NCBI GenBank assembly: GCA_030041495.1
Contig: JASHNT010000141.1
Location: 237,559 to 301,558 of the forward strand
DNA: 64,000 nt
Source: Bryobacteraceae bacterium
GTDB taxonomy: Bacteria > Acidobacteriota > Terriglobia > Bryobacterales > Bryobacteraceae
Direction: 5' to 3'
Positions 40,047 through 50,144 of this stretch are shown here, piece by piece. A program made the position numbers and the translations under genes. Under the pieces are notes generated by a model. That model worked only from the letters and a program-made list of their open reading frames with translations. It made no database searches and was not told the origin of the DNA. Position 1 is the first letter of the stretch. Each line of letters begins with the position of its first letter.

Positions 40047-40631
40047 CTAGTGAAGCGTTCCGGCGGTTGCTGGCGCGCCGAAGGGTCGTGGCATGTAAGT
40101 CAGGATGAAGTGCTGCATCCCTTTTTCCATCCAGCTCATTCCCAGGGAGCGCGCTTCCGCCAAGGCTTTGTCATTTTGCCAATGATCGTGTTCGACACGA
40201 TAACAAGCGATTACGCTGCCGGTGCGATCCGCGCCGCGCCTGCAGTGAACGAAGACGGGGCCTATGGAGCGATCCTCCAGAAGATCCAGCACACGCGCGA
40301 CAGCGGCGCCGGACGGCGCATGCATTCCGTTCATCGGAATGGGAACGTAACGCATGCCGTCGGCTGTGACGGCTTTTTCTTCGCCGCGCGACCGGTCGCC
40401 TACCTCGCGCAGGTCGACCACGATCTTGATTCCCAATTTCGCAAGACTGCGGAATCCCTCAGCCGTCGGCTGCGCTCCACGATAAACCTGGTCGTCAACT
40501 TTGTGGAAGTTGCCGACTCCTTCGAGGAACGTAGATCCAGCCACGGACCCACCCAGGGCTGAGAGCGATGCAGCACATATTGTAAGGAGAGCGGCGGCAG
40601 AGCGCCGGTGAAGGAACTTCAGAGACTGCAT
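40047..40631 (-). CDS. Exported dual-specificity/tyrosine-type phosphatase
   Basis: A 194-residue protein. An N-terminal signal-like segment (FLHRRSAAALLTICAASLSA) is followed by a DSP-type domain: VYRGAQPTAEGFRSLAKLGI, VVDLREVGDRSRGEE and the CX5R catalytic loop PVFVHCRRGADRTGSVIACY. The YRGAQP...VVDLR pattern is that of fused-DSP-PTPase/IP3-phosphatase-like bacterial enzymes. It would act in the periplasm on phosphoproteins or inositol/lipid phosphates. It sits just downstream of the aminopropyltransferase gene on the same strand (47-base gap) and may belong to that module. Confidence 0.82.
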   Translation of the reverse strand: MQSLKFLHRRSAAALLTICAASLSALGGSVAGSTFLEGVGNFHKVDDQVYRGAQPTAEGFRSLAKLGIKIVVDLREVGDRSRGEEKAVTADGMRYVPIPMNGMHAPSGAAVARVLDLLEDRSIGPVFVHCRRGADRTGSVIACYRVEHDHWQNDKALAEARSLGMSWMEKGMQHFILTYMPRPFGAPATAGTLH

Positions 40632-40678: not shown

Positions 40679-42172
40679 TCACCGCGCGATCTCTTTCCAC
40701 TCCTTTTCGTAATAGCGCACCAGCACCTGATCGTTCAACCGATTCACTTCTGCAGGGACAGGTTGCATGTCGCGGGCGAAGTCGAACATCTCGGGCACCC
40801 CTTCGAGGGTCAAGAAGCGCAGTCCATCGGGAAGCTTTTGCGGCGGCGACCAGGATTCGCCAGCCAAGGTATAGCCCCATTCGCCGAAGCTCGGAACATA
40901 GACATGATACGGCCAGGTGTGAAAACCAGCCTGCTTGAGCGTCTCGACAATGCACCAATACGATTGGCGCGAGAACATGGGCGATGTGCTCTGCACCACG
41001 GTAAGTCCGTTAGCGCTGAGGTGCTTCTTCAGAAGGCGATAGAACGCGGTGGTGTAGAGCTTGCCCAGGGAGAAGCTGGTGGGATCGGGAAAATCGACAA
41101 CGATGAAATCCCAGGAGCCTTGGTTTCGATCCAGCCATACAAAGGCATCGTCATTGATGACGTGGACTCGGCGGTTCTTGAATGCGCCTCCGTTCAGCGG
41201 AGCGAGCAAGGGGTTATCGGTGAACAGGCGCGTCATCTCCGGATCGAGATCGATCAAGGTGATGCTTTCGAGATTGGGGTAACGAAGCAGCTCGCGGACG
41301 GCGAGTCCGTCGCCGCCGCCCAGCACCAGTGCACGACGGGCCCAGGGCAGCGAAGCCAAGCCGGGGTGCACGAGGGCTTCATGATAACGGTACTCATCGC
41401 GCGAGCTGAATTGAAGATGTGAATTCAGAAACAGCCGCAGGTCGTCCTTCCAGCGCGTGATGACGATGCGCTGGTAGCGAGTCTCCCGCTGGAAGATGAC
41501 ATCGTCGGCGTAGAGCTGGGTGTCGGCAGCGGAGGCAATCCAATTCGAGGCGTACATGCCGCTGCACAGCAGCGTCAACACCGCTACGCAGCCCACGCGC
41601 ATCGCCCGGGGACTCCGCAGTTGATCGCGAAATAGATGCGTCGACCACAAGGCCACCAGAGCATTGATCATGCCGAACATGATTGCGGCTCGCACCAGGC
41701 CGAGCTTCGGAACCAGCCACAGAGGGAAGGCGATGGAGGCTCCCAGAGCGCCTAGATAGTCGAAAGTCAGCACGTGGCTGACAAGATCGCGGAAGCGGAA
41801 TCGGCCTTCCAGGATGCGCATCAGCAAAGGGATTTCGAGGCCGACCAGCACGCCGATTGCGATCACCAATGCGTATAAGGCGAAGACAAAGCTGTGCGTG
41901 TAGGCGAAGGCCAGGAACAACAGCGAAGAAGAAAATCCTCCCACCACCCCCACCATCAGCTCCAGAGAGACAAAGCGTTCGACCAAGCCACCGCTCAAGA
42001 ATCTCGAAAGCCAGCTCCCGACGCCCATGGCGAATAGGTAGGAGCCGATGACGGTGGAAAATTGAAGGACGCTATCGCCGAGCAGATAGCTGGCGAGGGT
42101 CCCGGCGATCAGCTCATAGATGAGGCCGCAGGCGGCGATCAGGAGGACGGAAAGAAATAGGGCGACTGCCAT
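40679..42172 (-). CDS. Membrane-embedded spermidine synthase-like aminopropyltransferase
   Basis: A 497-residue protein with seven or so hydrophobic helices in the first 220 residues (IAACGLIYELIAGTLASYLL, FSTVIGSYLFAMGVGSWLSR, LEIPLLMRILEGRFRFRDLV and others), then a soluble SpeE-like domain: LVLGGGDGLAVRELLRYPNL (motif with GGGDG), LIDLDPEMTRLF, FIVVDFPDPTSFSLGKLYTT. It should use decarboxylated SAM, whose producing enzyme is encoded a few genes upstream. The membrane part is not found in ordinary SpeE and suggests work at the membrane. The start follows DUF350 after a strong hairpin. Confidence 0.88.
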   Translation of the reverse strand: MAVALFLSVLLIAACGLIYELIAGTLASYLLGDSVLQFSTVIGSYLFAMGVGSWLSRFLSGGLVERFVSLELMVGVVGGFSSSLLFLAFAYTHSFVFALYALVIAIGVLVGLEIPLLMRILEGRFRFRDLVSHVLTFDYLGALGASIAFPLWLVPKLGLVRAAIMFGMINALVALWSTHLFRDQLRSPRAMRVGCVAVLTLLCSGMYASNWIASAADTQLYADDVIFQRETRYQRIVITRWKDDLRLFLNSHLQFSSRDEYRYHEALVHPGLASLPWARRALVLGGGDGLAVRELLRYPNLESITLIDLDPEMTRLFTDNPLLAPLNGGAFKNRRVHVINDDAFVWLDRNQGSWDFIVVDFPDPTSFSLGKLYTTAFYRLLKKHLSANGLTVVQSTSPMFSRQSYWCIVETLKQAGFHTWPYHVYVPSFGEWGYTLAGESWSPPQKLPDGLRFLTLEGVPEMFDFARDMQPVPAEVNRLNDQVLVRYYEKEWKEIAR

Positions 42173-42194
42173 TTAGGCGCAGCGCACAGCGAAG

Positions 42195-42243
42195 CGTTGT
42201 GCGCGATACCTTTCTTGAGTCGCGCACAACGGGCTAGTAGCCC
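42195..42243 (-). promoter_or_regulatory. Strong hairpins between DUF350 and the aminopropyltransferase gene
   Basis: CGTTGTGCGCGA (42195-42206) and TCGCGCACAACG (42220-42231) form a perfect 12-bp stem with a 13-base loop. It is followed on the right by a smaller stem, GGGCT/AGCCC (42231-42243). They lie between genes transcribed in the same direction and have no T-tract, so they may be an attenuator, an RNA-processing site or a copy of an intergenic repeat (CGCACAACGG is shared with the elements at 37874 and 49112). Confidence 0.55.
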
Positions 42244-42255
42244 GGTGCGCTCGAT

Positions 42256-42456
42256 TTAGTGCACTGCCGCGGCAATGATGATGCAAATTCCCAGGGCCAC
42301 TGAGCCCACAAGAATCGCCAGCGCGACGTTCTTGCCGTCCACCACTTCGCGCCACAAGTGATACGGCGTCAATTTGTCGATAATCACGAAAACGAACACG
42401 AAGATCAGAGTGCCCAAAAGGGCGTAGATCAGGGCATTGCCGAGATTCTGGGCCAT
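42256..42456 (-). CDS. DUF350 membrane protein
   Basis: A 66-residue protein with two hydrophobic helices: ALIYALLGTLIFVFVFVIID and VALAILVGSVALGICIIIAA, separated by a short charged turn (KLTPYHLWREVVDGKN). That is one DUF350 unit; longer members have two or more. In E. coli the related YjfL lies in the yjfIJKLMC operon with a PspA homologue and a polyamine-modifying enzyme; here it also sits beside a polyamine enzyme. It is probably an envelope protein. Confidence 0.85.
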   Translation of the reverse strand: MAQNLGNALIYALLGTLIFVFVFVIIDKLTPYHLWREVVDGKNVALAILVGSVALGICIIIAAAVH

Positions 42457-42459
42457 GAA

Positions 42460-42645
42460 TCACTTGCCTCCGACATAGCGTGGATAGAAACCATAGTGGG
42501 CGCGCCAAGCGCCGGGGTTGTCGCGAACAGTTTTGGGAACGTTATTAAGCTGGTTGACGCGATTGAGAGTCCAGCCGCGGTATTCAGCCACCGTTGTTCC
42601 GGTGAGCAGCAGCATGCTGTACACGAGATAGCCGGCGAAGCGCAT
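42460..42645 (-). CDS. Small exported protein of the polyamine cassette
   Basis: A 61-residue protein. It has an N-terminal hydrophobic segment (FAGYLVYSMLLLTGTTVAE), then a polar tail with RGWTLNRVNQLNNVPKTVRD and AHYGFYPRYVGGK. It is likely exported or anchored. Intergenic distances are tiny (3 bases on each side), so it is part of the operon between DUF4178 and DUF350. Family not recognised. Confidence 0.6.
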   Translation of the reverse strand: MRFAGYLVYSMLLLTGTTVAEYRGWTLNRVNQLNNVPKTVRDNPGAWRAHYGFYPRYVGGK

Positions 42646-42648
42646 AGG

Positions 42649-43989
42649 CTAGTTGTCTCCTGCGAAGGCATCGGCAATCGCCGGGTCGATCCCGGCTGGT
42701 GAATGATCGCTGTTCATCCAGCGTTGCGTTTCGAAGCCGCGCGCGCGGATGGTGTACCAGACCGGCGGAATCAGCAGCAAGGCAAAGGCGATCAAGAACC
42801 AAGTATAGTTGGGGACGTCGTGGCGCAGGGTCAGGTTATAGGCGACCGCGCCGGAGTCCATTTCCGGCTCGACCCGCAGATAATATTTGCCGGGCGCCAC
42901 CGAAGGCAGCATTACGGTGGAACCGCGGGAGCCTTCGTCCCAAGGGCCGTCGCTATCGGCGCCGTGATAATAGCTGACCTCGCGCCCGAAATCGTAGCCC
43001 TGCCCGGTATCTTCGTTGACTAGAGCGAAGTTGAAATAGGTCCAGTTGTTGTCGAGATCGGTGTTGACGCCAAGCTCGAGCGTCGCCGGACGGCCGGTGA
43101 GATTGAAATCCGGCGTGACGAAGCTCGGCTCGGCGGTCGAGCCGCTCGCATACGAATAGGAATTGTGGAAGACGGTTTCCTGGCGGCTGAAAGTCGCGAA
43201 GAAGATGGCGAGCGCCACGAGCATCGCCGTCATGAGCGCGAAAGCGCGCCAGATGCCGCCGACGTTGCCGGCCATCGGCGAGGGCTGGTTCAGATAGATT
43301 CCGCGAGCCGGAGGAGCGCTGCCTGTGAGCGTAAACGCTTTCCAGATCGCGCTGCCCGGAACGTATTCGCCTTGGGACCAGTTGATTTCGCCGGCAGTGA
43401 TTTCCGCCGAAAGGACGTAAGGAGGGGCAACGTAATCGTGCGTATCCACGGTGTCGCCGGTCTTGACGCGCCAGGGAAACTCACCCAGGACGAAGGTGGT
43501 GGTGGCCGGGCCACCGGAGAAATGTTTATAGACGCGGCCGTCGTAAAAAACAGGAAACTGGCCTCGCGATTGACTGCTCCGGGGCATGGCTTCCAGCGGG
43601 GTGATGAAATTCCAATGCCCGTCGTATTGAGAGAGATAGCGGAAGCCTTTGTAGGGGTTGAAGAGGAGATACTCTTCCCATTCGAAGGTTTCGCCATCCT
43701 CTTCGACGGCGCGGGCCTGGAAGCCGATGACCTCGTACGTGGCGCCCCGAAGCGTTCCGCGGGACCCCAGCGGGATGAGCGGCGTGCGGCGATTCTGCGC
43801 TCCTTCGACTTTCTGGAGGATCTGGAGCTGCGGCGAAGATGCGTCCAGCACGGTCAGACATTGCGGGCAAACGGCGGTGATCGAGTAGCCGAAGCCGCGG
43901 CGTTCGACCGGCCCTCCGCAATTGGGGCAGGCCAGTGCTTGCGGTTTGGCGACTACGGACTGCGCCGAAGGGTTCATGCGGCGGCCCAC
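42649..43989 (-). CDS. DUF4178 protein with zinc ribbon and membrane/extracytoplasmic part
   Basis: A 446-residue protein. A zinc ribbon opens it (ACPNCGGPVERRGFG...CPQC, about 18-43), followed by a DUF4178 domain (LIPLGSRGTLRGATYEVIGF, WEEYLLFNPYKGFRYLSQYD). A membrane helix at about 255-275 (ALMTAMLVALAIFFATFSRQ) leads to a beta-rich extracytoplasmic domain (LGVNTDLDNNWTYFNFALVN, GKYYLRVEPEMDSGAVAYNL) and a last helix (WFLIAFALLLIPPVWYTIRA). It overlaps the preceding DUF4178 gene by 16 bases. It couples a cytosolic zinc-binding head with an outward-facing domain; function unproven. Confidence 0.82.
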   Translation of the reverse strand: MGRRMNPSAQSVVAKPQALACPNCGGPVERRGFGYSITAVCPQCLTVLDASSPQLQILQKVEGAQNRRTPLIPLGSRGTLRGATYEVIGFQARAVEEDGETFEWEEYLLFNPYKGFRYLSQYDGHWNFITPLEAMPRSSQSRGQFPVFYDGRVYKHFSGGPATTTFVLGEFPWRVKTGDTVDTHDYVAPPYVLSAEITAGEINWSQGEYVPGSAIWKAFTLTGSAPPARGIYLNQPSPMAGNVGGIWRAFALMTAMLVALAIFFATFSRQETVFHNSYSYASGSTAEPSFVTPDFNLTGRPATLELGVNTDLDNNWTYFNFALVNEDTGQGYDFGREVSYYHGADSDGPWDEGSRGSTVMLPSVAPGKYYLRVEPEMDSGAVAYNLTLRHDVPNYTWFLIAFALLLIPPVWYTIRARGFETQRWMNSDHSPAGIDPAIADAFAGDN

Positions 43990-44618
43990 CCTTCAAACTG
44001 CTTCAGATTCCTAAGCTGCAACTCCTCAAACTCCACCCATTCGCCGAGATACAACGCCGGCGTGGGATCGCTATAGTCGAGCGTTCCAAACGGGCGGCCC
44101 GCGGTACGCAAGTCGGCGAACAGCATGTTGGATTTGCCGTAAAAGGGAAACGGCAGCTCGCCTTCGACGCCTTTGTATGAGGCTCGCGTGATGGTGGCGA
44201 CTTCGTAGGTGACTTGATTGAACTCGAACTGATGGCCGCGGGTGACCGCGCCGGCCGCAGGAAGCGACGAAGGAGCGGTTACGAGAAATGACACGGCGTA
44301 CTGTAACTGTGCGTCGGAGAGCCAGCCGCTGGAGCCATCGGAGAACACGATGTGCCATTCGTTCCAGCCGCCGCCTTCCCATTCGTAGATGATGCGGCCC
44401 AGGACCTGAAAAGTTTTTCCCCGATAGGTGCCTTCGGTCCACAAGGTGATGGGCGAAGGATCGGGAGGTAGATCGGCGACCTGGCCGACTTTGCGGAGAT
44501 CGAGATCGGTGCGGACCAGGATGGAATGGCAGAATGAGCACACGGTCTCGACCGCGCTCGACCAGCGGAACTGGACCGGCGCGCCGCAGCTCGGGCAGTT
44601 GGCGGAGACTTGGCTCAT
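43974..44618 (-). CDS. DUF4178 protein, short form
   Basis: A 214-residue soluble protein with an N-terminal zinc ribbon (NCPSCGAPVQFRW...CSFC) and a DUF4178 domain: LWTEGTYRGKTFQVLGRIIY, EWHIVFSDGSSGWLSDAQLQ, GHQFEFNQVTYEVATITRAS, KSNMLFADLRTAGRPFGTLD. It lacks the membrane part of its neighbour. It overlaps the next gene (start 43989) by 16 bases, which implies coupled translation. Together the two DUF4178 proteins may form a complex. Confidence 0.82.
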   Translation of the reverse strand: MSQVSANCPSCGAPVQFRWSSAVETVCSFCHSILVRTDLDLRKVGQVADLPPDPSPITLWTEGTYRGKTFQVLGRIIYEWEGGGWNEWHIVFSDGSSGWLSDAQLQYAVSFLVTAPSSLPAAGAVTRGHQFEFNQVTYEVATITRASYKGVEGELPFPFYGKSNMLFADLRTAGRPFGTLDYSDPTPALYLGEWVEFEELQLRNLKQFEGWAAA

Positions 44619-44640
44619 AGACTGCTCATGAAGCTGCTGC

Positions 44641-45000
44641 TCATAAAGCTTCGATCGGCCGCTCGACGCGCCGCACTTGCACGGAGACCGCGCCGAACTC
44701 GAGCGCCAGTTCCTCTTCGAAATCCCAAATGGGGCGTGGGCGGCAGCAGAAGACGTTGAGGCACAGCGATTGATGCTCGGGAAAGGTGTGGCAGGCGATG
44801 TGCGACTCTTTGAGCAGCGTCAGGCCGGTGATGCCGCCGGTCTCGGGGAACTGATGCCAGGAGGTTTCGCCGACCAAATGCAAGCTCATCCCGTCGATCA
44901 AGCGCGCGAAGAATCGCTTCATGCGGGCGAGGTCGGCAAGGTTCGCCGGGGCGCACCCGTGAGCCTCCACGATCCACTCGCAGCCGGACATTTGTAACAT
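44641..45000 (-). CDS. speD: S-adenosylmethionine decarboxylase proenzyme
   Basis: A 119-residue prokaryotic class 1B-type proenzyme from the ATG at 45000 (the frame is open to 45099, overlapping the SPFH gene). It self-cleaves at Ser66 in LLKESHIACHTFPEH to form the pyruvoyl group. His and Cys of that motif, which assist processing and catalysis, are present. Decarboxylated SAM is the aminopropyl donor for the spermidine-synthase-like protein encoded downstream. So donor and transferase are in one cassette. An ATG at 44991 is the alternative start. Confidence 0.88.
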   Translation of the reverse strand: MLQMSGCEWIVEAHGCAPANLADLARMKRFFARLIDGMSLHLVGETSWHQFPETGGITGLTLLKESHIACHTFPEHQSLCLNVFCCRPRPIWDFEEELALEFGAVSVQVRRVERPIEAL

Positions 45001-45038
45001 TATTGCCGAATCGCGGTATCGCCGAATCGCGCTCGCGG

Positions 45039-46124
45039 TTACTGCTGGCCGCCGCACTCCGGGCAGAATTTGGCCCGGCGAGGAATCGATTTGCCGCACT
45101 CGACACAGAACTTGGTTTCGGCTCCGGCAGCGGGCGCAGGTCCGCCGCCGGCGGCGTTGGGCGATTGCACTGGAGCCGCGGGCGCAGCAGGCGGAGGAGG
45201 AGGTTGAGGAGAAGGAGCCCCTCCGCCGCCGGAATTGGGATTCTGAGGATTGGGATTCTGAGCGCCGGGGTTCATGGCGTTCATCATTTGGCTGGCCATC
45301 GTCATGCCGGCGCCCAGCCCCACGCCGATTCCCGCGAAACCGCCGCCTTCATTGGCCGCGGCGATAGGCATCGAATTGGCAACCTGGAACTGCGTGTATT
45401 TGTTCATATCGCCCAGCATGTTCATGCCGACGCGAGTGTCGAGCATCTTCTGCAACTCTTCGGGCAGCGAGAGATTTTCGACCACGAAGCTATCGAGCGC
45501 CACGCCCAGTTCGGCGAACAGCGGCTTTAAACCTTCGGCGATCTTCGCGCCAAGTTCCACCTGATTGGCGGCCATATCGAGGAACGGCACGCCGCTTTCG
45601 GCGAAGGCTCCGGTCATGCGCCCGACGATGGTGTTGCGGAGCTGGCCTTCGAGATCGGCGAGTTTATACAGCTCGCGCGTGCCGCTCACCTTGGTGTAGA
45701 AGGTGCGCGGATTATCGATGTGCCAGGAATAGATGCCGTAGCCGCGCACGCGCACCGCACCGAATTCCTTGTCGCGGATGGTGATGGGCGTGGCGGTGCC
45801 CCAGCGCTGGTCGGTTTTGATGCGCGTGGAGAAGAAGTAGACGTCGCTCTTGAAGGGCGACTTGAACTCCTTACTCCAGTTCATCAGGTCGGTGAGGATG
45901 GGCAGGTTCTGCGTGGTAAGGGTGTACAGTCCGGGGCCGAAGATGTCGGCGATGCGGCCTTCGTTGACGAACGCCGCGGCTTGCGAATCGCGCACGGTGA
46001 GCTGGCCGCCGTTCATGATCTCCATGTCCGCCGTAGGGAAACGCCAGGCGAGCGTGTCCTGGTCGGACTCCGTCCACTGGATTACTTTGATGAATTGTTT
46101 TTCTAGGAAATCCCGCAGCGCCAT
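45039..46124 (-). CDS. SPFH/virion-core-like protein (YdjI type) with C-terminal zinc ribbon
   Basis: A 361-residue protein. The SPFH-like part (about 1-250) reads KQFIKVIQWTESDQDTLAWR, IFGPGLYTLTTQNLPILTDL, KEFGAVRVRGYGIYSWHIDN and ESGVPFLDMAANQVELGAKI, typical of the YdjI/virion core family. It is followed by a Gly/Met-rich stretch and a Pro/Asn-rich linker, and ends with the double-cysteine zinc ribbon CVECGKSIPRRAKFCPECG. Such proteins form membrane-associated assemblies. It lies between the AIM24 genes and speD in the same operon. Confidence 0.88.
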   Translation of the reverse strand: MALRDFLEKQFIKVIQWTESDQDTLAWRFPTADMEIMNGGQLTVRDSQAAAFVNEGRIADIFGPGLYTLTTQNLPILTDLMNWSKEFKSPFKSDVYFFSTRIKTDQRWGTATPITIRDKEFGAVRVRGYGIYSWHIDNPRTFYTKVSGTRELYKLADLEGQLRNTIVGRMTGAFAESGVPFLDMAANQVELGAKIAEGLKPLFAELGVALDSFVVENLSLPEELQKMLDTRVGMNMLGDMNKYTQFQVANSMPIAAANEGGGFAGIGVGLGAGMTMASQMMNAMNPGAQNPNPQNPNSGGGGAPSPQPPPPPAAPAAPVQSPNAAGGGPAPAAGAETKFCVECGKSIPRRAKFCPECGGQQ

Positions 46125-46227
46125 ACAACGGTCCCCCCTTTATGGAACTGATGTGTCACTAGAAAGCATAACGCTAACCGGCGGCGGGAAGTTCCGTGGA
46201 TGTAGTGGGGACATAGTCAAGGGATCG

Positions 46228-46395
46228 TCAACGGTTAGCCGAGCCTAAGAAAAGAAGATAGTTGACGGCGAAGAGCACGACAGCGAGGATAAGCCAACGG
46301 CCCTGAGTGCGCTTGGAAGCGAACACGCTTAGCGCAATGCTGAATAGAAATGCGACGGTAGAAGCGATCAACATTTCGCTGGTCAGCTTACGCAT
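46228..46395 (-). CDS. Small two-helix membrane protein
   Basis: A 55-residue protein with two hydrophobic helices: MLIASTVAFLFSIALSVFAS and WLILAVVLFAVNYLLFLG, separated by a basic turn (KRTQGR). It fills most of the gap between the second AIM24 gene and the SPFH gene, in the same direction. No clear RBS is seen just before the ATG. Family unknown. Confidence 0.55.
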   Translation of the reverse strand: MRKLTSEMLIASTVAFLFSIALSVFASKRTQGRWLILAVVLFAVNYLLFLGSANR

Positions 46396-46446
46396 GGTTA
46401 AGTTCCAATCGCCGCAACGCGAGCGGCGACTCCTCTCGTATAGTTG

Positions 46447-46472
46447 GTGTCACTCCCAGAGACGAGTGACAC
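46447..46472 (-). promoter_or_regulatory. Hairpin between AIM24 and the small membrane gene
   Basis: GTGTCACTC (46447-46455) and GAGTGACAC (46464-46472) form a perfect 9-bp stem with an 8-base loop. It is in the only wide gap of the cassette. There is no T-run. It could be a transcription attenuator, a binding site for a dimeric regulator, or an mRNA stabiliser separating upstream and downstream expression. Confidence 0.5.
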
Positions 46473-46536
46473 TGGCAGAAAGACCGTCCGATCTCGTCAC
46501 TAAGAGACCACTCCCAGGATCTTGCCTGTGAAGGCC

Positions 46537-47562
46537 TTACCAGGTCCGTTCCGTCGCGTAGGAGAAGTTGGACAGATTGCGGGTCTCGCCTTCGATGCGG
46601 TCGAAGACCGATTGCACGCCGACTCGTCCCGGTCCCATCAGCCGCAGCCAGATGTAGCGATTGCCCCAGGAGCCCCAACCGCTCCAAATGGTGCCGGGAC
46701 GCTCGAAGTGAAGGTGCATCTGCACAGAAGGATCCTTGAAGACCAGCGCCGTGGGTTTGATGAGGATGGTATCGCCCGGGCCGAGCTCGCGGATGAAGAC
46801 GTTGCCGGCGGCATGAAGCATCAGTAAACCTGGGTCACCGGGAGCGGCGAACCGGTCCATGAATTGGCCCACGGGATAATGCGTTTCGGTGTCGTTGCCA
46901 TTGCGGCTGGTCAGCCAGACGCCGGTCTGGAACCAGTCGTATTTGACGTTGGAGGTCGCGGCCAGGAAAAGATGTTCGCGCACGTCAATGGACTGGCCGG
47001 GCTGCAGGGGGACGGTGATGAGCTCGCCGGGAGCGTCGCGCGAAAAGGCGATGTGACCGGGGCCGTGAGCCTCGGTCATCACCAGAGGCATGCCCGCGAA
47101 GAGGCGGTTCAAGGCTCCGGCGAGAGACATAGCATTGACGTTGACCTGCGGGTCCTTCCATAGGATCACGTGATGCGCGAAATAGACGCCATCGCCCGAG
47201 GCAAGGTTCACGTCGGCGACGGGAACGTAGGCTCCTTCGATCTGGCAGGATGACCTGCCGAAGTTGAGCTTGGCCATGTCCTTGCGCCCGGGCAACTCCT
47301 TCCAGCCGGACTCGGTAACGATCTGGTCTGCGCGCAAGGCTGCACCGCAGTGGGGGCAACTGGAAACCGCCTCGGTGATCGAGGCTCCGCACCAAATGCA
47401 TTTTGCAGAAGCATGAGATGCGGGAGGAGGAGCCGGCGGCTTGGGTGGTTCCGTGTGCGGAACGGGGGGCGGGACTGGCGGCGCGGCTCCAAGTTTTGTC
47501 CCGCAGGAGACGCAGAAGTTGGCTCCATCCCGAATCTGTGATCCGCAATGAACACAAAACAT
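46537..47562 (-). CDS. AIM24-family protein with double zinc ribbon
   Basis: A 341-residue protein. Two cysteine pairs at the N-terminus (CVHCGSQIRDGANFCVSCG) and a second ribbon (CIWCGASITEAVSSCPHCG) precede a Pro-rich linker and the AIM24 (DUF124) beta-sandwich: FGRSSCQIEGAYVPVADVNL, GDGVYFAHHVILWKDPQVNV, GPGHIAFSRDAPGELITVPL and the C-terminal GPGRVGVQSVFDRIEGE. AIM24 proteins resemble the TRAP-like fold and are linked to membrane organisation in mitochondria. It starts 7 bases after the other AIM24 gene. Confidence 0.85.
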   Translation of the reverse strand: MFCVHCGSQIRDGANFCVSCGTKLGAAPPVPPPVPHTEPPKPPAPPPASHASAKCIWCGASITEAVSSCPHCGAALRADQIVTESGWKELPGRKDMAKLNFGRSSCQIEGAYVPVADVNLASGDGVYFAHHVILWKDPQVNVNAMSLAGALNRLFAGMPLVMTEAHGPGHIAFSRDAPGELITVPLQPGQSIDVREHLFLAATSNVKYDWFQTGVWLTSRNGNDTETHYPVGQFMDRFAAPGDPGLLMLHAAGNVFIRELGPGDTILIKPTALVFKDPSVQMHLHFERPGTIWSGWGSWGNRYIWLRLMGPGRVGVQSVFDRIEGETRNLSNFSYATERTW

Positions 47563-47569
47563 GATCAGG

Positions 47570-48397
47570 CTACTCCGTTTTATGGTGCACGTACATGGAT
47601 TGAATCCCGACCCGGCCCGGCCCGGTCATGCGCGCCATGTTCATAGTCGTGCCGCCGAACAGGCCGGAGCCAAGGCGCTGGAACTCGACATCCATGGTGA
47701 CGCTGGAATCTTTGTAGAGGAACGCGCCGGGCTCGACCATGATGCTTTCACCGGCGGCGAGCCGACGCTCGAAGACATTGCCGTAGCCGTGCAGGATCAG
47801 CAGGCCGGGAGTGTTGGTGGTGACGAAGCGGTCCATGTACATGCCCTGGCCGCCGAACAAAATGTTGGCGAGCCCCTTGATGCGCACGAATGAATAGGAG
47901 ATCTGGTGGGAGCAAAGCAGGAAAGCATGCTCGCGCGCGTCGATTTCCATGCCGGGGTGCAGTGGCAGAACCACCAGCTCACCTGTGGCGTCGCGGGAGA
48001 ACGCGATGCGGCCGGGACCTTGCGCCACGCTGATCAGGAACGGCATGCCAGAGAAGGCTCGCGCGATACCGCCAGAGAGGGGTAACAGCGAGAGCGGTAC
48101 CTGCTCGTCTTTCCACAGCATGACGTGATGCTCGAAGAAGATGGCGTCGCCCTGGCCTAGGTTGATCTCGGCGACCGGAACGACGTCGCCTTCCACCTGG
48201 CACGTGCTCGAGTTGAATGTGATCTCGGTCATGTCGCGAATGCGCGGCGCTTCGCGCCAGCCGGATTCGCTCACCAGATTCTTTACGTCAAGCGGCGCTC
48301 CGCAGGCGCGGCAGGTGGTCGCGCCGGCCGTGTTCAGGCTCTGGCACCACTGGCACTGCAGGCGATCGAGCGATTCGCCCATCGGCAAACTGGACAT
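47570..48397 (-). CDS. AIM24-family protein with one zinc ribbon
   Basis: A 275-residue paralogue of the following gene. It has a single ribbon (CQWCQSLNTAGATTCRACG), then the AIM24 domain: FNSSTCQVEGDVVPVAEINL, GDAIFFEHHVMLWKDEQVPL, GPGRIAFSRDATGELVVLPL, GMYMDRFVTTNTPGLLILHG and GPGRVGIQSMYVHHK. It is the first of the pair on the minus strand. The duplication predates the current arrangement, since the copies differ at many positions. Confidence 0.85.
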   Translation of the reverse strand: MSSLPMGESLDRLQCQWCQSLNTAGATTCRACGAPLDVKNLVSESGWREAPRIRDMTEITFNSSTCQVEGDVVPVAEINLGQGDAIFFEHHVMLWKDEQVPLSLLPLSGGIARAFSGMPFLISVAQGPGRIAFSRDATGELVVLPLHPGMEIDAREHAFLLCSHQISYSFVRIKGLANILFGGQGMYMDRFVTTNTPGLLILHGYGNVFERRLAAGESIMVEPGAFLYKDSSVTMDVEFQRLGSGLFGGTTMNMARMTGPGRVGIQSMYVHHKTE

Positions 48398-48452: not shown

Positions 48453-48956
48453 TTACTGATTCGACAGCCCGGGCACGCCGGACACCGGGCCCAGATACGC
48501 CAGCAGCCGGCCGGCGGTGATGGCGGCGGCCCAGCAGAACAGCGAGAGCCAGGCCAGGCGCTTGACGTTATCCGGGACGGGGCCGTTGTCGAGATTGGGA
48601 TCGCGGAAGATCTTCTTTCGCATAATCACAATAAGCGCGACGCCGGAAAATACGAACACCATCTTGATATAGAAGTCGTAATTGGTGAGCTTGGTGGTCG
48701 CGTCGGCGATCATCAACGTGGTGCCGGTGACCGCGTTGACCCAGAAACCGGTCCACATCAGCGGATACAGTTTCTCAAGTGGGCGAATCGGGATGGTGGG
48801 TGAGACGCCGAGCAGGCGCAGATTGATCACGGCCGCCACGCCGGCTACGATTCCCATCCCGATGGTGTGCGCCGTGAGGATGTAGGCGTAGGCCTGGGTC
48901 TGCAGGACCCACATGGAGAACCGGAGATGTTCGAGATAGGAGAGAAACTCCATCAT
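48453..48956 (-). CDS. Four-helix membrane protein, DUF6644/DUF2214-like
   Basis: A 167-residue protein with four hydrophobic helices: YILTAHTIGMGIVAGVAAVI, YPLMWTGFWVNAVTGTTLMI, FYIKMVFVFSGVALIVIMRK and LAWLSLFCWAAAITAGRLLA. The first helix carries a conserved His (TAHTIGMG) and NLRLLGVS follows. It closely resembles the C-terminal half of the protein from 49197-50144. The start at 48956 overlaps the stop of the tiny upstream gene (ATGATG). Electron transfer or haem binding is conceivable from the conserved histidine, but unproven. Confidence 0.7.
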   Translation of the reverse strand: MMEFLSYLEHLRFSMWVLQTQAYAYILTAHTIGMGIVAGVAAVINLRLLGVSPTIPIRPLEKLYPLMWTGFWVNAVTGTTLMIADATTKLTNYDFYIKMVFVFSGVALIVIMRKKIFRDPNLDNGPVPDNVKRLAWLSLFCWAAAITAGRLLAYLGPVSGVPGLSNQ

Positions 48957-49096
48957 TGCTTTAGCTCCTGGGGATGGCGGGGTTCCTCGGGCTTAGAGTT
49001 GTCTTTCGATTCCGGGCTCTTTTCGATGAGAAAGCCCACAATGGCGGTGAGGATGATGGCTCCGAAAACCAGCCCAGCTACTTGCAGGCCCAACAT
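48953..49096 (-). CDS. Very small single-helix membrane protein
   Basis: A 47-residue protein: one membrane helix (GLQVAGLVFGAIILTAIVGF) and a charged tail rich in Lys, Glu and Pro. GGAG lies 7 bases before the ATG at 49096, and the stop overlaps the next start (ATGA), so it is translated in the same operon. Such short anchors are often subunits of the neighbouring membrane complex. Confidence 0.65.
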   Translation of the reverse strand: MLGLQVAGLVFGAIILTAIVGFLIEKSPESKDNSKPEEPRHPQELKQ

Positions 49097-49111
49097 TTTT
49101 ATTCTCCGCTC

Positions 49112-49130
49112 CGCACAACGGAGCCTGGGC
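49112..49130. repeat. Second copy of the 19-base intergenic element
   Basis: CGCACAACGGAGCCTGGGC, identical to 37874-37892. It lies in the 100-base gap between the 315-aa and 47-aa membrane protein genes. The flanks are also GC-rich and share CCCTG(T/C)GCG on the right, so the full repeat may be about 60-90 bases long. Confidence 0.5.
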
Positions 49131-49196
49131 GCGCGGGAAGCATCGTGCCCCGTCGAAGCTCGGCCGAGGTGCGCCCGGCCCTGCGCGGCGCGTTTC

Positions 49197-50144
49197 TCAA
49201 AACGCGTTCCCCAGGAATGGCAGCATGCGGCCGCAGAACAGAACTCCGACCATCAACACCACGGCGGATGCAGCCACGAACTTAGCGATGGGCGAGGCGT
49301 CTTGGCCGGCTTCGAGCTTCCAGGGCTCGTCGAAGATGGTGAAGTAGATCACGTTCAGGCTGGTGATCAGAATCAGCGCCATTTTCCAAATGAAAACCGG
49401 ATTGTGCGTGTACTGCTGCGGCGCGCCGACAAAGAAGAACATGCCGGTAATGGTGTTCAAGCCGTAGCCCAAAATTCCCCACGGAAGCATTCGATGCACG
49501 GCATGATACGGCACGCTCTTCATCAGACCCAGCAGGCGTAAATCCACCAGCGCGGCGATGCCGAAGAACAAAGACAGGCCGATGAAGTGCAACGTCTCGC
49601 AGGTCGGCCACACCCACTTGGTGCCGACCACAAAGTTGCCGACCTCGCGGCCTAACGGAGGAGCGGGAGCCGCGCTAGCATCGCGGATTTCGGGATGGCG
49701 GATATCGCCGCCGAGATTAGCGGTGCGCGCGATTGCAGCAAAAGTGACCAGCGAGAGAAGCAGGATGATCGCCGTATTCCAGGTGGGAACCTGGCGGGAG
49801 CGCCGGTATTGCCACAGACCGAGCCAGGCGAACGCGCCCACGAATTCCATCATCAGCATCGCCGGGAAGGCCGCGCCCTCGTGCGCTTCGATCAACTGGC
49901 GAATGACAGCCGGGTCTTGGCACGGTGAGTTGGGCGCGCTCATCTTGCAGATCTGTTCTTCAGCGGCGTTGCCGGTGACGTAGGTGGGAATGGTCACCAC
50001 GGCGACGCCCAAAAGCAGCACCAGGCTCACTTCCGTTATGTGATCGCGCTTGGCGGCCCAACCAAGGAGCAGCAGGCCGATGCCGATGAGGGTGCCGACG
50101 GTCGGGACGTGATTCAGCAGCAGGTGTATGTGAGTGAGATCCAT
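49197..50144 (-). CDS. Eight-helix membrane protein, DUF2231-like plus DUF6644-like halves
   Basis: A 315-residue protein. The N-terminal half (HIHLLLNHVPTVGTLIGIGL, AKRDHITEVSLVLLLGVAVV, LIEAHEGAAFPAMLMMEFVG) has the LNHVP/AHE pattern of DUF2231-like proteins. The C-terminal half (TCETLHFIGLSLFFGIAALV, DLRLLGLMKSVPYHAV, GYGLNTITGMFFFVGAPQQY) matches the next membrane gene, 48453-48956. It heads a minus-strand run leading into the AIM24 genes. Conserved histidines suggest metal or haem in the membrane. Function unknown. Confidence 0.7.
   Translation of the reverse strand: MDLTHIHLLLNHVPTVGTLIGIGLLLLGWAAKRDHITEVSLVLLLGVAVVTIPTYVTGNAAEEQICKMSAPNSPCQDPAVIRQLIEAHEGAAFPAMLMMEFVGAFAWLGLWQYRRSRQVPTWNTAIILLLSLVTFAAIARTANLGGDIRHPEIRDASAAPAPPLGREVGNFVVGTKWVWPTCETLHFIGLSLFFGIAALVDLRLLGLMKSVPYHAVHRMLPWGILGYGLNTITGMFFFVGAPQQYTHNPVFIWKMALILITSLNVIYFTIFDEPWKLEAGQDASPIAKFVAASAVVLMVGVLFCGRMLPFLGNAF

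What the first reader, a model, noticed from the sequence alone, without database searches (positions are those of the whole stretch)
40679..48397. Polyamine-SPFH-AIM24-DUF4178-DUF350 cassette
Nine consecutive minus-strand genes: two AIM24 proteins, a 55-aa two-helix protein, a YdjI-type SPFH protein, SAM decarboxylase, two DUF4178 proteins (the second overlaps by 16 bases), a 61-aa exported protein, DUF350 and a membrane-embedded aminopropyltransferase. Five non-enzymatic proteins each carry zinc ribbons. The aminopropyl donor enzyme and the transferase are both present, yet arginine or ornithine decarboxylase is not. This suggests the system modifies a membrane component or a polyamine at the membrane. 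Related gene sets (yjfIJKLMC, DUF350/DUF4178 neighbours) are known, but I do not know this exact composition to be characterised.
Basis: partly seen in the sequence, partly recalled or inferred. Interest (0 to 1): 0.82.

Follow-up and report, generated by a model that had tools for sequence, protein, structure and literature searches.

The report
Membrane aminopropyl-transfer cassette with lysine-tailed microprotein
This gene cassette, found in three bacterial phyla, is predicted to make an aminopropyl donor and likely attaches it, at the outer face of the cell membrane, to a tiny partner protein that ends in lysine in every copy examined, instead of making the polyamine spermidine.

Summary
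The ten minus-strand genes are real, but form two units. The core is SPFH, SpeD, two DUF4178 proteins, a 61-aa microprotein, DUF350 and a 7TM aminopropyltransferase (SpdSyn); it recurs in Bryobacteraceae, Gemmatimonadota and Pseudomonadota, and mostly without SPFH in other Acidobacteriota. The AIM24 pair is a separate module: absent from all 90 other cassette neighbourhoods scanned, and elsewhere often beside an SPFH gene. In this genome it sits on another contig. Across 121 family genomes it co-occurs with SpdSyn almost perfectly (52 both, 1 and 0 discordant, 68 neither). Arginine decarboxylase exists elsewhere in the genome; no soluble SpeE was found. SpeD keeps AdoMet decarboxylase residues. 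The microprotein ends in lysine in all 92 loci where it was identified, including very divergent ones; three relatives carry a lipobox. Charge distribution over seven TM helices predicts a periplasmic SpdSyn active site. Most likely reading: periplasmic aminopropylation of the microprotein's C-terminal lysine, then oxidation; this is inferred, not shown. Related operons are published (Ravi 2024; Li 2019, recalled), so this is a new variant with a testable acceptor.

The parts
45039..46124 (-). Band_7_1 SPFH protein with C-terminal zinc ribbon (core in Bryobacteraceae)
   Evidence: Pfam PF13421 3.8e-75; found near SpdSyn in 37 of 39 family loci but in only 2 of 51 phylum loci; clusters with the cassette SPFH of two same-genus genomes, support 0.991; the only over-cut-off copy in the genome
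44641..45000 (-). SpeD, S-adenosylmethionine decarboxylase, class 1b (core); the longest ORF runs to 45099
   Evidence: PF02675 4.3e-23; only SpeD in the genome; equivalents of T. maritima S63, H68, C83, P71, E72 in 68 of 68 SpeDs from the fetched loci, window included
43974..44618 (-). DUF4178-A with N-terminal zinc ribbon (core)
   Evidence: PF13785 3.6e-16; fused with DUF4178-B in relatives L133 and L054 (two DUF4178 stretches in one protein)
42649..43989 (-). DUF4178-B: zinc ribbon, DUF4178, TM, predicted periplasmic domain, TM (core)
   Evidence: PF13785 1.3e-21; TM 249-267 and 392-410; in 38 of 39 family and 46 of 51 phylum loci
42460..42645 (-). 61-aa single-TM microprotein ending in Gly-Gly-Lys (core; predicted aminopropyl acceptor)
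   Evidence: Family alignment; C-terminal Lys in all 92 loci where the microprotein was identified (91, one)
42256..42456 (-). DUF350, half-length two-TM form (core)
   Evidence: PF03994 2.7e-14; TM 8-26 and 39-57; 37 of 39 family and 49 of 51 phylum loci
40679..42172 (-). Seven-TM aminopropyltransferase (SpdSyn; PRK03612/NF002956) (core)
47570..48397 (-). AIM24-A with zinc ribbon (separate AIM24 module)
   Evidence: PF01987 6.1e-34; in a tandem pair with AIM24-B away from any cassette in 12 of 120 other family genomes, one of them broken at a contig end
46537..47562 (-). AIM24-B with two zinc ribbons (separate AIM24 module)
   Evidence: PF01987 2.1e-24; orthologues at 62-69% identity; an SPFH lies within 2.3 kb of the pair in 7 of 12 loci
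46228..46395 (-). 55-aa two-TM ORF, coding status uncertain, no relative found
   Evidence: No hit in 90 cassette loci nor in 14 AIM24 loci

Best explanation
The core genes likely form a membrane machine that transfers an aminopropyl group to the C-terminal lysine of the 61-aa microprotein on the periplasmic side of the inner membrane, instead of making spermidine. Predicted steps: (1) SpeD decarboxylates AdoMet in the cytosol (residues shown, activity inferred). (2) The seven-TM domain of SpdSyn, perhaps helped by DUF350, passes dcAdoMet to a catalytic domain on the periplasmic face (topology predicted from charges, transport inferred). (3) That domain aminopropylates the lysine side chain, an aminobutyl amine like putrescine, in a hypusine-like way (inferred). 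(4) The amine oxidase, predicted to be Tat-exported and encoded elsewhere in this genome, oxidises the product, perhaps to a reactive aldehyde (inferred). (5) SPFH and the zinc-ribbon DUF4178 proteins would scaffold the complex; the AIM24 pair is an accessory of the SPFH protein (inferred).
For: Core found in three phyla. SpdSyn and amine oxidase co-occur in 52 genomes, discordant in 1 and 0, absent together in 68 (Fisher p 9e-34), also where unlinked. SpeD residues intact in 68 of 68; PMC10407285 section 7 (read) names S63, H68, C83 and a diagnostic Pro. No soluble SpeE found: the six PF01564 hits are this protein (497 aa) and five with open frames of 776-861 aa. Residues D288, D310, D342, D360, D363, Q394 and H264-E265 invariant in 56 SpdSyn sequences. 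C-terminal lysine in 92 of 92 microproteins against 55 of 1081 background genes; last codon AAA or AAG in 81 of 81, never AAT/AAC. A lipobox (read by eye) in the microproteins of B. stagnalis, B. arboris and N. resinovorum puts those tails outside. Positive-inside rule: K+R 9.38 against 3.11, N-terminus in and catalytic domain out, 56 of 56. The amine oxidase has an RR motif in 44 of 45 aligned proteins; its model resembles putrescine oxidase, monoamine oxidase and spermidine dehydrogenase.
Against: No step is experimentally shown. A periplasmic dcAdoMet-using enzyme would need dcAdoMet export, for which I know no precedent. Loop L5 of SpdSyn also carries positive charge (K+R 1.57), and the topology rests on the AlphaFold count of seven helices. 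The C-terminal GG-K overlaps a likely Shine-Dalgarno (GGA at codon -3 in 59 of 81; 44 of 56 near the DUF350 start and 14 of 23 farther away), so part of the tail conservation is at the DNA level. 74 of the 81 microproteins fall in one similarity cluster, so independent cases number about eight. Tails of the Acidobacteriota members are rich in Arg/Lys, which alone would favour a cytosolic tail. Six of 98 loci yielded no microprotein; in none of these six was DUF4178-B detected. SpeD is near SpdSyn in only 26 of 51 phylum loci and SPFH in only 2 of 51. Burkholderia encodes the microprotein on the strand opposite SpdSyn. No amine oxidase within 9 kb in Tritonibacter and Ensifer. The lipobox-like motif of the oxidase is in only 1 of 45 database proteins.
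Confidence: 0.38

Rival explanations
1. The acceptor is a small molecule or lipid at the membrane (for example an amino-lipid or a periplasmic amine). The microprotein is a structural subunit whose terminal lysine only makes a salt bridge, and the amine oxidase recycles the product.
For: The catalytic pocket residues are those of ordinary aminopropyltransferases; acidic residues E20, E71, E113 and D138 in the TM domain are invariant in 56 sequences and could hold a small amine; Ravi et al. propose polyamine sensing or aminopropylation of other substrates.
Against: Does not by itself explain why the last residue of a fast-changing microprotein is always lysine.
Confidence: 0.3
2. The cassette is an envelope-stress scaffold of the PspA/YdjI kind in which SPFH, DUF4178 and DUF350 sense or shape the membrane, and SpeD and SpdSyn simply make spermidine locally.
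For: SPFH with zinc ribbon is YdjI-like; related operons carry PspA; the genome has SpeA and so could make agmatine.
Against: No soluble SpeE found; no PspA family hit among the ten cassette proteins (not tested around other cassettes); the Li 2019 abstract (recalled, paper not held) reports that such fusions did not complement an E. coli spermidine synthase mutant; the co-occurring amine oxidase is unexplained.
Confidence: 0.15
3. The first reader's whole ten-gene set, AIM24 included, is one conserved system.
For: AIM24-A/B lie upstream on the same strand, and the AIM24 pair lies near an SPFH in 7 of 12 other loci, so a link through SPFH is plausible.
Against: AIM24 is in 0 of 90 other cassette loci; no genome-level association with SpdSyn (4 of 53 against 9 of 68, p 0.39); AIM24-B is followed by gaps of 141 and 103 bases around the 55-aa ORF before SPFH.
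Confidence: 0.07
4. The constant GG-K end of the microprotein is only a by-product of a Shine-Dalgarno site for DUF350.
For: GGA-GGN-AAR just before the DUF350 start in many loci.
Against: Lysine persists without GGAGG (Novosphingobium SHK, Methylophilus QHK, Tritonibacter RVK, Ensifer SGK) and in Burkholderia, where the microprotein does not precede DUF350; AAR 81 against AAY 0.
Confidence: 0.05

Closest known systems
PspA-CesT/Tir operon with 7TM-spermidine-synthase fusion, DUF350, 'Ctha_1186' lipoprotein and DUF4178 (Ravi et al. 2024, PMC11237479)
   Same: 7TM-fused aminopropyltransferase, DUF350, DUF4178 and a small exported or lipoprotein partner; a band-7 variant with AdoMet decarboxylase and polyamine oxidase is also mentioned there
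   Different: No PspA or CesT/Tir found here; YdjI-type SPFH instead; the passages read mention no C-terminal lysine or periplasmic active site, and the main text has no match for 'Acidobacteri'; whether Ctha_1186 is this microprotein could not be checked
SpeD plus MFS-SpdSyn fusion plus DUF350 clusters (Li et al. [quoted passage not shown] title seen in reference lists, abstract recalled, paper not held)
   Same: Class 1b SpeD, membrane-fused SpdSyn and DUF350 in one cluster; non-polyamine acceptor proposed
   Different: Acceptor not identified there as far as I recall; here a candidate acceptor and a predicted exported oxidase are named
Bacillus subtilis ydj operon with PspA and a band-7 zinc-ribbon protein
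   Same: SPFH (band-7) with C-terminal zinc ribbon
   Different: PspA, TPM and YdjG-like proteins not found among the cassette proteins; polyamine enzymes present here
Deoxyhypusine modification of eIF5A (described in passing in PMC9992855, passage)
   Same: A lysine side chain would be extended by an aminoalkyl group
   Different: Different enzyme family, donor (dcAdoMet instead of spermidine), target and compartment; resemblance of principle only

Membership tests
Polyamine aminopropyltransferase PRK03612 (NF002956) | Score over the curated cut-off along the full length | tested here: met
   677.8 bits against 472, residues 3-494
Polyamine aminopropyltransferase PRK03612 (NF002956) | Transfers aminopropyl to a polyamine | not testable with these tools
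   Catalytic residues present; acceptor unknown
AdoMet decarboxylase (not SpeD-derived arginine or ornithine decarboxylase) | S63, H68, C83 and the diagnostic Pro of T. maritima SpeD | tested here: met
   68 of 68 SpeDs for each; criteria from PMC10407285 section 7. That the Pro is P71 is my reading; the figure is not held. The four residues diagnostic for the ornithine decarboxylase group could not be placed
PspA-CesT/Tir polyamine operon (Ravi 2024, second group) | 7TM-SpdSyn, DUF350 and DUF4178 | tested here: met
PspA-CesT/Tir polyamine operon (Ravi 2024, second group) | PspA and CesT/Tir dyad in the operon | tested here: not met
   No such family among the ten cassette proteins at E <= 0.1 nor among the three flanking proteins scanned
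PspA-CesT/Tir polyamine operon (Ravi 2024, second group) | Small lipoprotein Ctha_1186 | tested here: inconclusive
   The window microprotein has no Cys; relatives in two Burkholderia and N. resinovorum have a lipobox by eye; Ctha_1186 itself not compared
Li 2019 SpeD/MFS-SpdSyn/DUF350 cluster | All three genes clustered | tested here: met
Li 2019 SpeD/MFS-SpdSyn/DUF350 cluster | Host lacks spermidine; SpdSyn does not complement speE | not testable with these tools
   No metabolite data; soluble SpeE not found in the genome
Flavin amine oxidase superfamily (partner gene, G000:C24) | PF01593 over cut-off and fold | tested here: met
   PF01593 over cut-off in two orthologues; the genome's own copy P0121 is listed with PF01593; its model (mean pLDDT 78.0) best matches putrescine and monoamine oxidases in the PDB, TM 0.6-0.7
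Flavin amine oxidase superfamily (partner gene, G000:C24) | Catalytic lysine and oxidase activity | not tested
   No residue-level alignment to a solved oxidase was made over the active site

The most novel reading that the evidence does not exclude
Bacteria of several phyla carry a periplasmic protein-modification pathway: dcAdoMet made by SpeD crosses the inner membrane through the transporter half of a transporter-synthase fusion and is used outside the cytosol to aminopropylate the C-terminal lysine of a dedicated membrane microprotein, a bacterial counterpart of hypusine, which a Tat-exported amine oxidase then converts into a reactive aldehyde for cross-linking or signalling in the envelope.
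Probability: 0.27. Interest if true: 0.92.

Novelty: new variant of a known kind. Interest (0 to 1): 0.62.

Why it matters
The acceptor of the membrane-fused spermidine synthases is, as far as I know, an open question. If the C-terminal lysine of the microprotein is the acceptor, one mass-spectrometry experiment could settle it, and it would add a hypusine-like modification and an extracytoplasmic use of decarboxylated AdoMet to bacterial biochemistry. The near-perfect co-occurrence with a predicted exported amine oxidase gives a second, independent handle on the product even if the lysine idea fails.

Tried and rejected
Rejected: AIM24 as a core member, though it keeps a link to SPFH. Rejected: SpeD as a disguised arginine decarboxylase. 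Rejected: a genome wholly lacking arginine decarboxylase. The phosphatase at 40047-40631 is not a conserved neighbour (window hit only). Shine-Dalgarno explanation of the tail: accepted for part of GG, rejected for K. The promoter and terminator scan gave no more than shuffles (2 against 2.6 and 7 against 7.4), so transcript boundaries remain unknown. The VIA look at SpdSyn covered the catalytic domain only; the fold of the 7TM part was barely tested. Foldseek matches of the amine oxidase rest on a model with pLDDT under 50 at residues 1-26, 96-115, 149-167, 266-271 and 386-390. By sequence alone the closest PDB chain of a relative's oxidase is a fragmentary match (residues 56-150) to a putative amine oxidase, 2b9w. 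No match of the Ensifer SpdSyn in phages. A second plasmid search with the Methylophilus SpdSyn gave the same ten records. Paper searches with no description of this exact set beyond the Ravi paper.


Full report
OBSERVATION. The ORFs are as described, all on the minus strand. Pfam and NCBIfam name AIM24 (two), Band_7_1 SPFH, AdoMet_dc, DUF4178 (two), DUF350 and polyamine aminopropyltransferase NF002956. The finding says nine genes but lists ten. Intergenic gaps: AIM24A-AIM24B 7, AIM24B-55aa 141, 55aa-SPFH 103, SPFH-SpeD -61 (longest ORF), SpeD-DUF4178A 22, DUF4178A-B -16, DUF4178B-microprotein 3, microprotein-DUF350 3, DUF350-SpdSyn 83.

WHAT IS CONSERVED. In the phylum, 52 of 297 genomes have an NF002956 protein over the cut-off; in the family, 50 of 121. 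I fetched the 52 phylum places outside the window, 36 of the 50 family places outside the window, and 4 places from a SpeD search. After dropping one duplicate and one stretch without SpdSyn, 90 loci remained; some stretches are cut by contig ends. Within the fetched stretch (up to about 18 kb), in 39 family loci: SPFH 37, SpeD 36, DUF4178A 37, DUF4178B 38, microprotein 38, DUF350 37, amine oxidase 26, AIM24 0, 55-aa ORF 0. In 51 phylum loci: SPFH 2, SpeD 26, DUF4178A as a separate match 4, DUF4178B 46, microprotein 41, DUF350 49, amine oxidase 45, AIM24 0. So SPFH is a constant member only in the family. Many phylum DUF4178B ORFs are about 650 aa; of two such proteins scanned (L054, L133) both carry two DUF4178 stretches, so the two overlapping genes here look like a split form of one protein.

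OTHER PHYLA. A Gemmatirosa plasmid (L145) has SPFH, SpeD, DUF4178A, DUF4178B, microprotein, DUF350, SpdSyn, amine oxidase in that order. The annotation of a Novosphingobium ES2-1 plasmid reads SPFH, DUF4178, DUF4178, hypothetical protein, DUF350, polyamine aminopropyltransferase, FAD-dependent oxidoreductase, speD. Methylophilus sp. 14 has SPFH with a SHOCT end, fused DUF4178, DUF350, SpdSyn, amine oxidase, with SpeD divergent. Burkholderia stagnalis has SpdSyn and oxidase on one strand and SPFH, DUF4178, microprotein and SpeD on the other. No amine oxidase was found within 9 kb in Tritonibacter and Ensifer.

THE MISSING PARTNER. The gene that commonly follows SpdSyn is a flavin amine oxidase (PF01593). 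It is not beside the window cassette, but the same genome has it on contig C24 at 55% identity to a relative's protein. Over the 121 family genomes I scored SpdSyn as present over the cut-off (50 genomes) or as a contig-end fragment (3), and the oxidase as present at 168 bits or more, fragments included; weak hits under 30 bits were counted as absent. Result: both 52, SpdSyn only 1 (G315), oxidase only 0, neither 68; Fisher p 9e-34. Related genomes are not independent, so the p value is only indicative, but the pair also holds where the two genes are far apart: in G359 on one contig about 2.75 Mb apart, in G398 on different large contigs. SpeD tracks SpdSyn as well: of 38 genomes listed in both, both 26, SpeD only 1 (G346), SpdSyn only 1 (G323), neither 10. 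In this count G298 is scored positive although its only SpeD match lies outside the cassette, and 53 negatives were not listed and could not be used.

AIM24. The AIM24 pair shows no genome-level association with SpdSyn (4 of 53 against 9 of 68, window genome included, p 0.39). In 12 other family genomes with the pair (one broken at a contig end), 7 of 12 loci have an SPFH gene within 2.3 kb; six of those seven genomes lack the SpdSyn cassette. In the SPFH tree the window protein clusters with the cassette SPFH of two same-genus genomes (support 0.991), while the AIM24-linked SPFHs form their own group within the cassette SPFHs (the supports printed for deeper nodes are 0.25-0.73). So AIM24 is likely a partner of SPFH, and the window shows two SPFH-using modules side by side.

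TOPOLOGY. Over 56 SpdSyn sequences, K+R counts are 9.38 on the N-terminus/L2/L4/L6 side and 3.11 on the L1/L3/L5/L7 side, the first larger in 56 of 56; the stretch before the catalytic domain is acidic (D+E 4.16, K+R 0.88). With seven helices this predicts an inside N-terminus and a periplasmic catalytic domain. Each helix has a best 19-residue hydropathy above 1 in all 56; the segment after them has a mean of -0.12. Ravi et al. also speak of a 7TM transporter-like domain. The amine oxidase carries an RR motif in 44 of 45 aligned proteins; in 59 longest-frame ORFs from the loci the motif is in 55 and a lipobox-like motif in 19 (1 of 45 in the aligned set), some perhaps by chance upstream of the true start. 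It is predicted to be exported. DUF4178B has two TM segments with a positive tail after the second, which puts the part between them outside.

THE MICROPROTEIN. It has one N-terminal hydrophobic stretch and a tail that diverges almost completely, yet always ends in lysine: GGK in most Acidobacteriota, HGK in Gemmatirosa, SHK in Novosphingobium, QHK in Methylophilus, RVK in Tritonibacter, SGK in Ensifer, SHK in Burkholderia. A rule that ignores the last residue gave 81 candidates in 98 loci (90 plus the window and seven others), all 81 ending in K. A profile of the family hits 82 loci at 18 bits or more, all 82 ending in K; the two together cover 91 loci, and B. stagnalis is added: 92 of 92. 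The remaining six loci have no detected DUF4178B and gave no microprotein. Background: 55 of 1081 gene calls of 120 aa or more end in K. The 81 fall into 8 clusters, one of which is the wrong candidate in L048. The tail often overlaps a GGAGG motif before DUF350 (GGA at codon -3 in 59 of 81), which can explain GG, but not AAA/AAG 81 against AAC/AAT 0, nor lysine in tails without GGAGG, nor Burkholderia, where the microprotein follows DUF4178 on the other strand. Three relatives have a lipobox by eye, which puts their tails in the periplasm; the others are assumed to share that orientation, although the Arg/Lys-rich tails of the Acidobacteriota members argue against it.

MECHANISM. A lysine side chain is an amine on a four-carbon chain, the same end that putrescine offers to spermidine synthase. 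The donor enzyme, the transferase, a partner ending in lysine and an amine oxidase are kept together, and the last three are all predicted to face the periplasm. I therefore favour aminopropylation of the microprotein's terminal lysine outside the cytosol, then oxidation by the amine oxidase. Shown: gene order, co-occurrence, residues, lysine. Predicted: topology, export. Inferred: dcAdoMet passage, acceptor, oxidation product, scaffold roles. The main weakness is that dcAdoMet would have to cross the membrane. If the catalytic domain is cytosolic after all, the small-molecule or lipid reading gains.

KNOWN WORK. Ravi et al. 2024 (passages read) describe operons with 7TM-SpdSyn, DUF350, a lipoprotein and DUF4178 beside PspA-CesT, and a band-7 variant with AdoMet decarboxylase and polyamine oxidase. 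Li et al. 2019 (title in reference lists; abstract recalled; not held) propose a non-polyamine acceptor. My searches, seen as listings except for the papers named here, and passages of PMC9992855 and PMC11107197, showed no mention of the terminal lysine or of a periplasmic catalytic domain; most subscription papers are not in that library.

VERDICT. A new variant of a known kind of operon, with one reader error (AIM24), one missed partner (amine oxidase) and a new, directly testable acceptor hypothesis.

Noticed in passing
G000:C24:21371-22906 (L144 8872-10407): The cassette's amine oxidase sits alone in this genome, among genes that look like glycosyltransferases, a deacetylase and a VgrG by eye, although it commonly follows SpdSyn in relatives.
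   Followed up: partly
L152-L157: In six genomes without SpdSyn the AIM24 pair faces an SPFH gene tail to tail with gaps of 0-18 bases; that SPFH group branches within the cassette SPFHs in the tree.
   Followed up: partly
window 40047-40631: Predicted dual-specificity phosphatase (best Pfam match PTP-NADK, PF22741) with an N-terminal hydrophobic segment, 47 bases after SpdSyn; not found beside other cassettes.
   Followed up: partly
G000 C44, C110, C91, C65, C26: Five further proteins (open frames 776-861 aa) with Spermine_synth domains of unknown role in the same genome.
   Followed up: no
L116 (G323), L118 (G298): Cassettes with SPFH, DUF4178, microprotein, DUF350 and SpdSyn but no SpeD found beside them; G298 has a weak SpeD match next to a SpeE-like match on another contig, G323 had no SpeD match.
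   Followed up: partly
L041, L043-L047, L053, L055, L056 (family f23): Cassettes with no SpeD in the fetched stretch but with DUF4178, microprotein, DUF350, SpdSyn and amine oxidase; the donor source was not looked for.
   Followed up: no
L051 (G077): Two SpdSyn genes on opposite strands about 4.5 kb apart with one amine oxidase between them and no DUF4178B detected.
   Followed up: no
window 48453-50144: Two membrane proteins, the longer weakly similar to DUF2214/DUF6644, upstream of the AIM24 pair.
   Followed up: no
L052, L054, L064, L067, L068, L076, L077, L082 (one genus, g43): Upstream of the cassette lies a conserved run that includes TatA/B- and TatC-like proteins (clusters c17, c11; named by eye), suggestive beside a predicted Tat-exported oxidase.
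   Followed up: no
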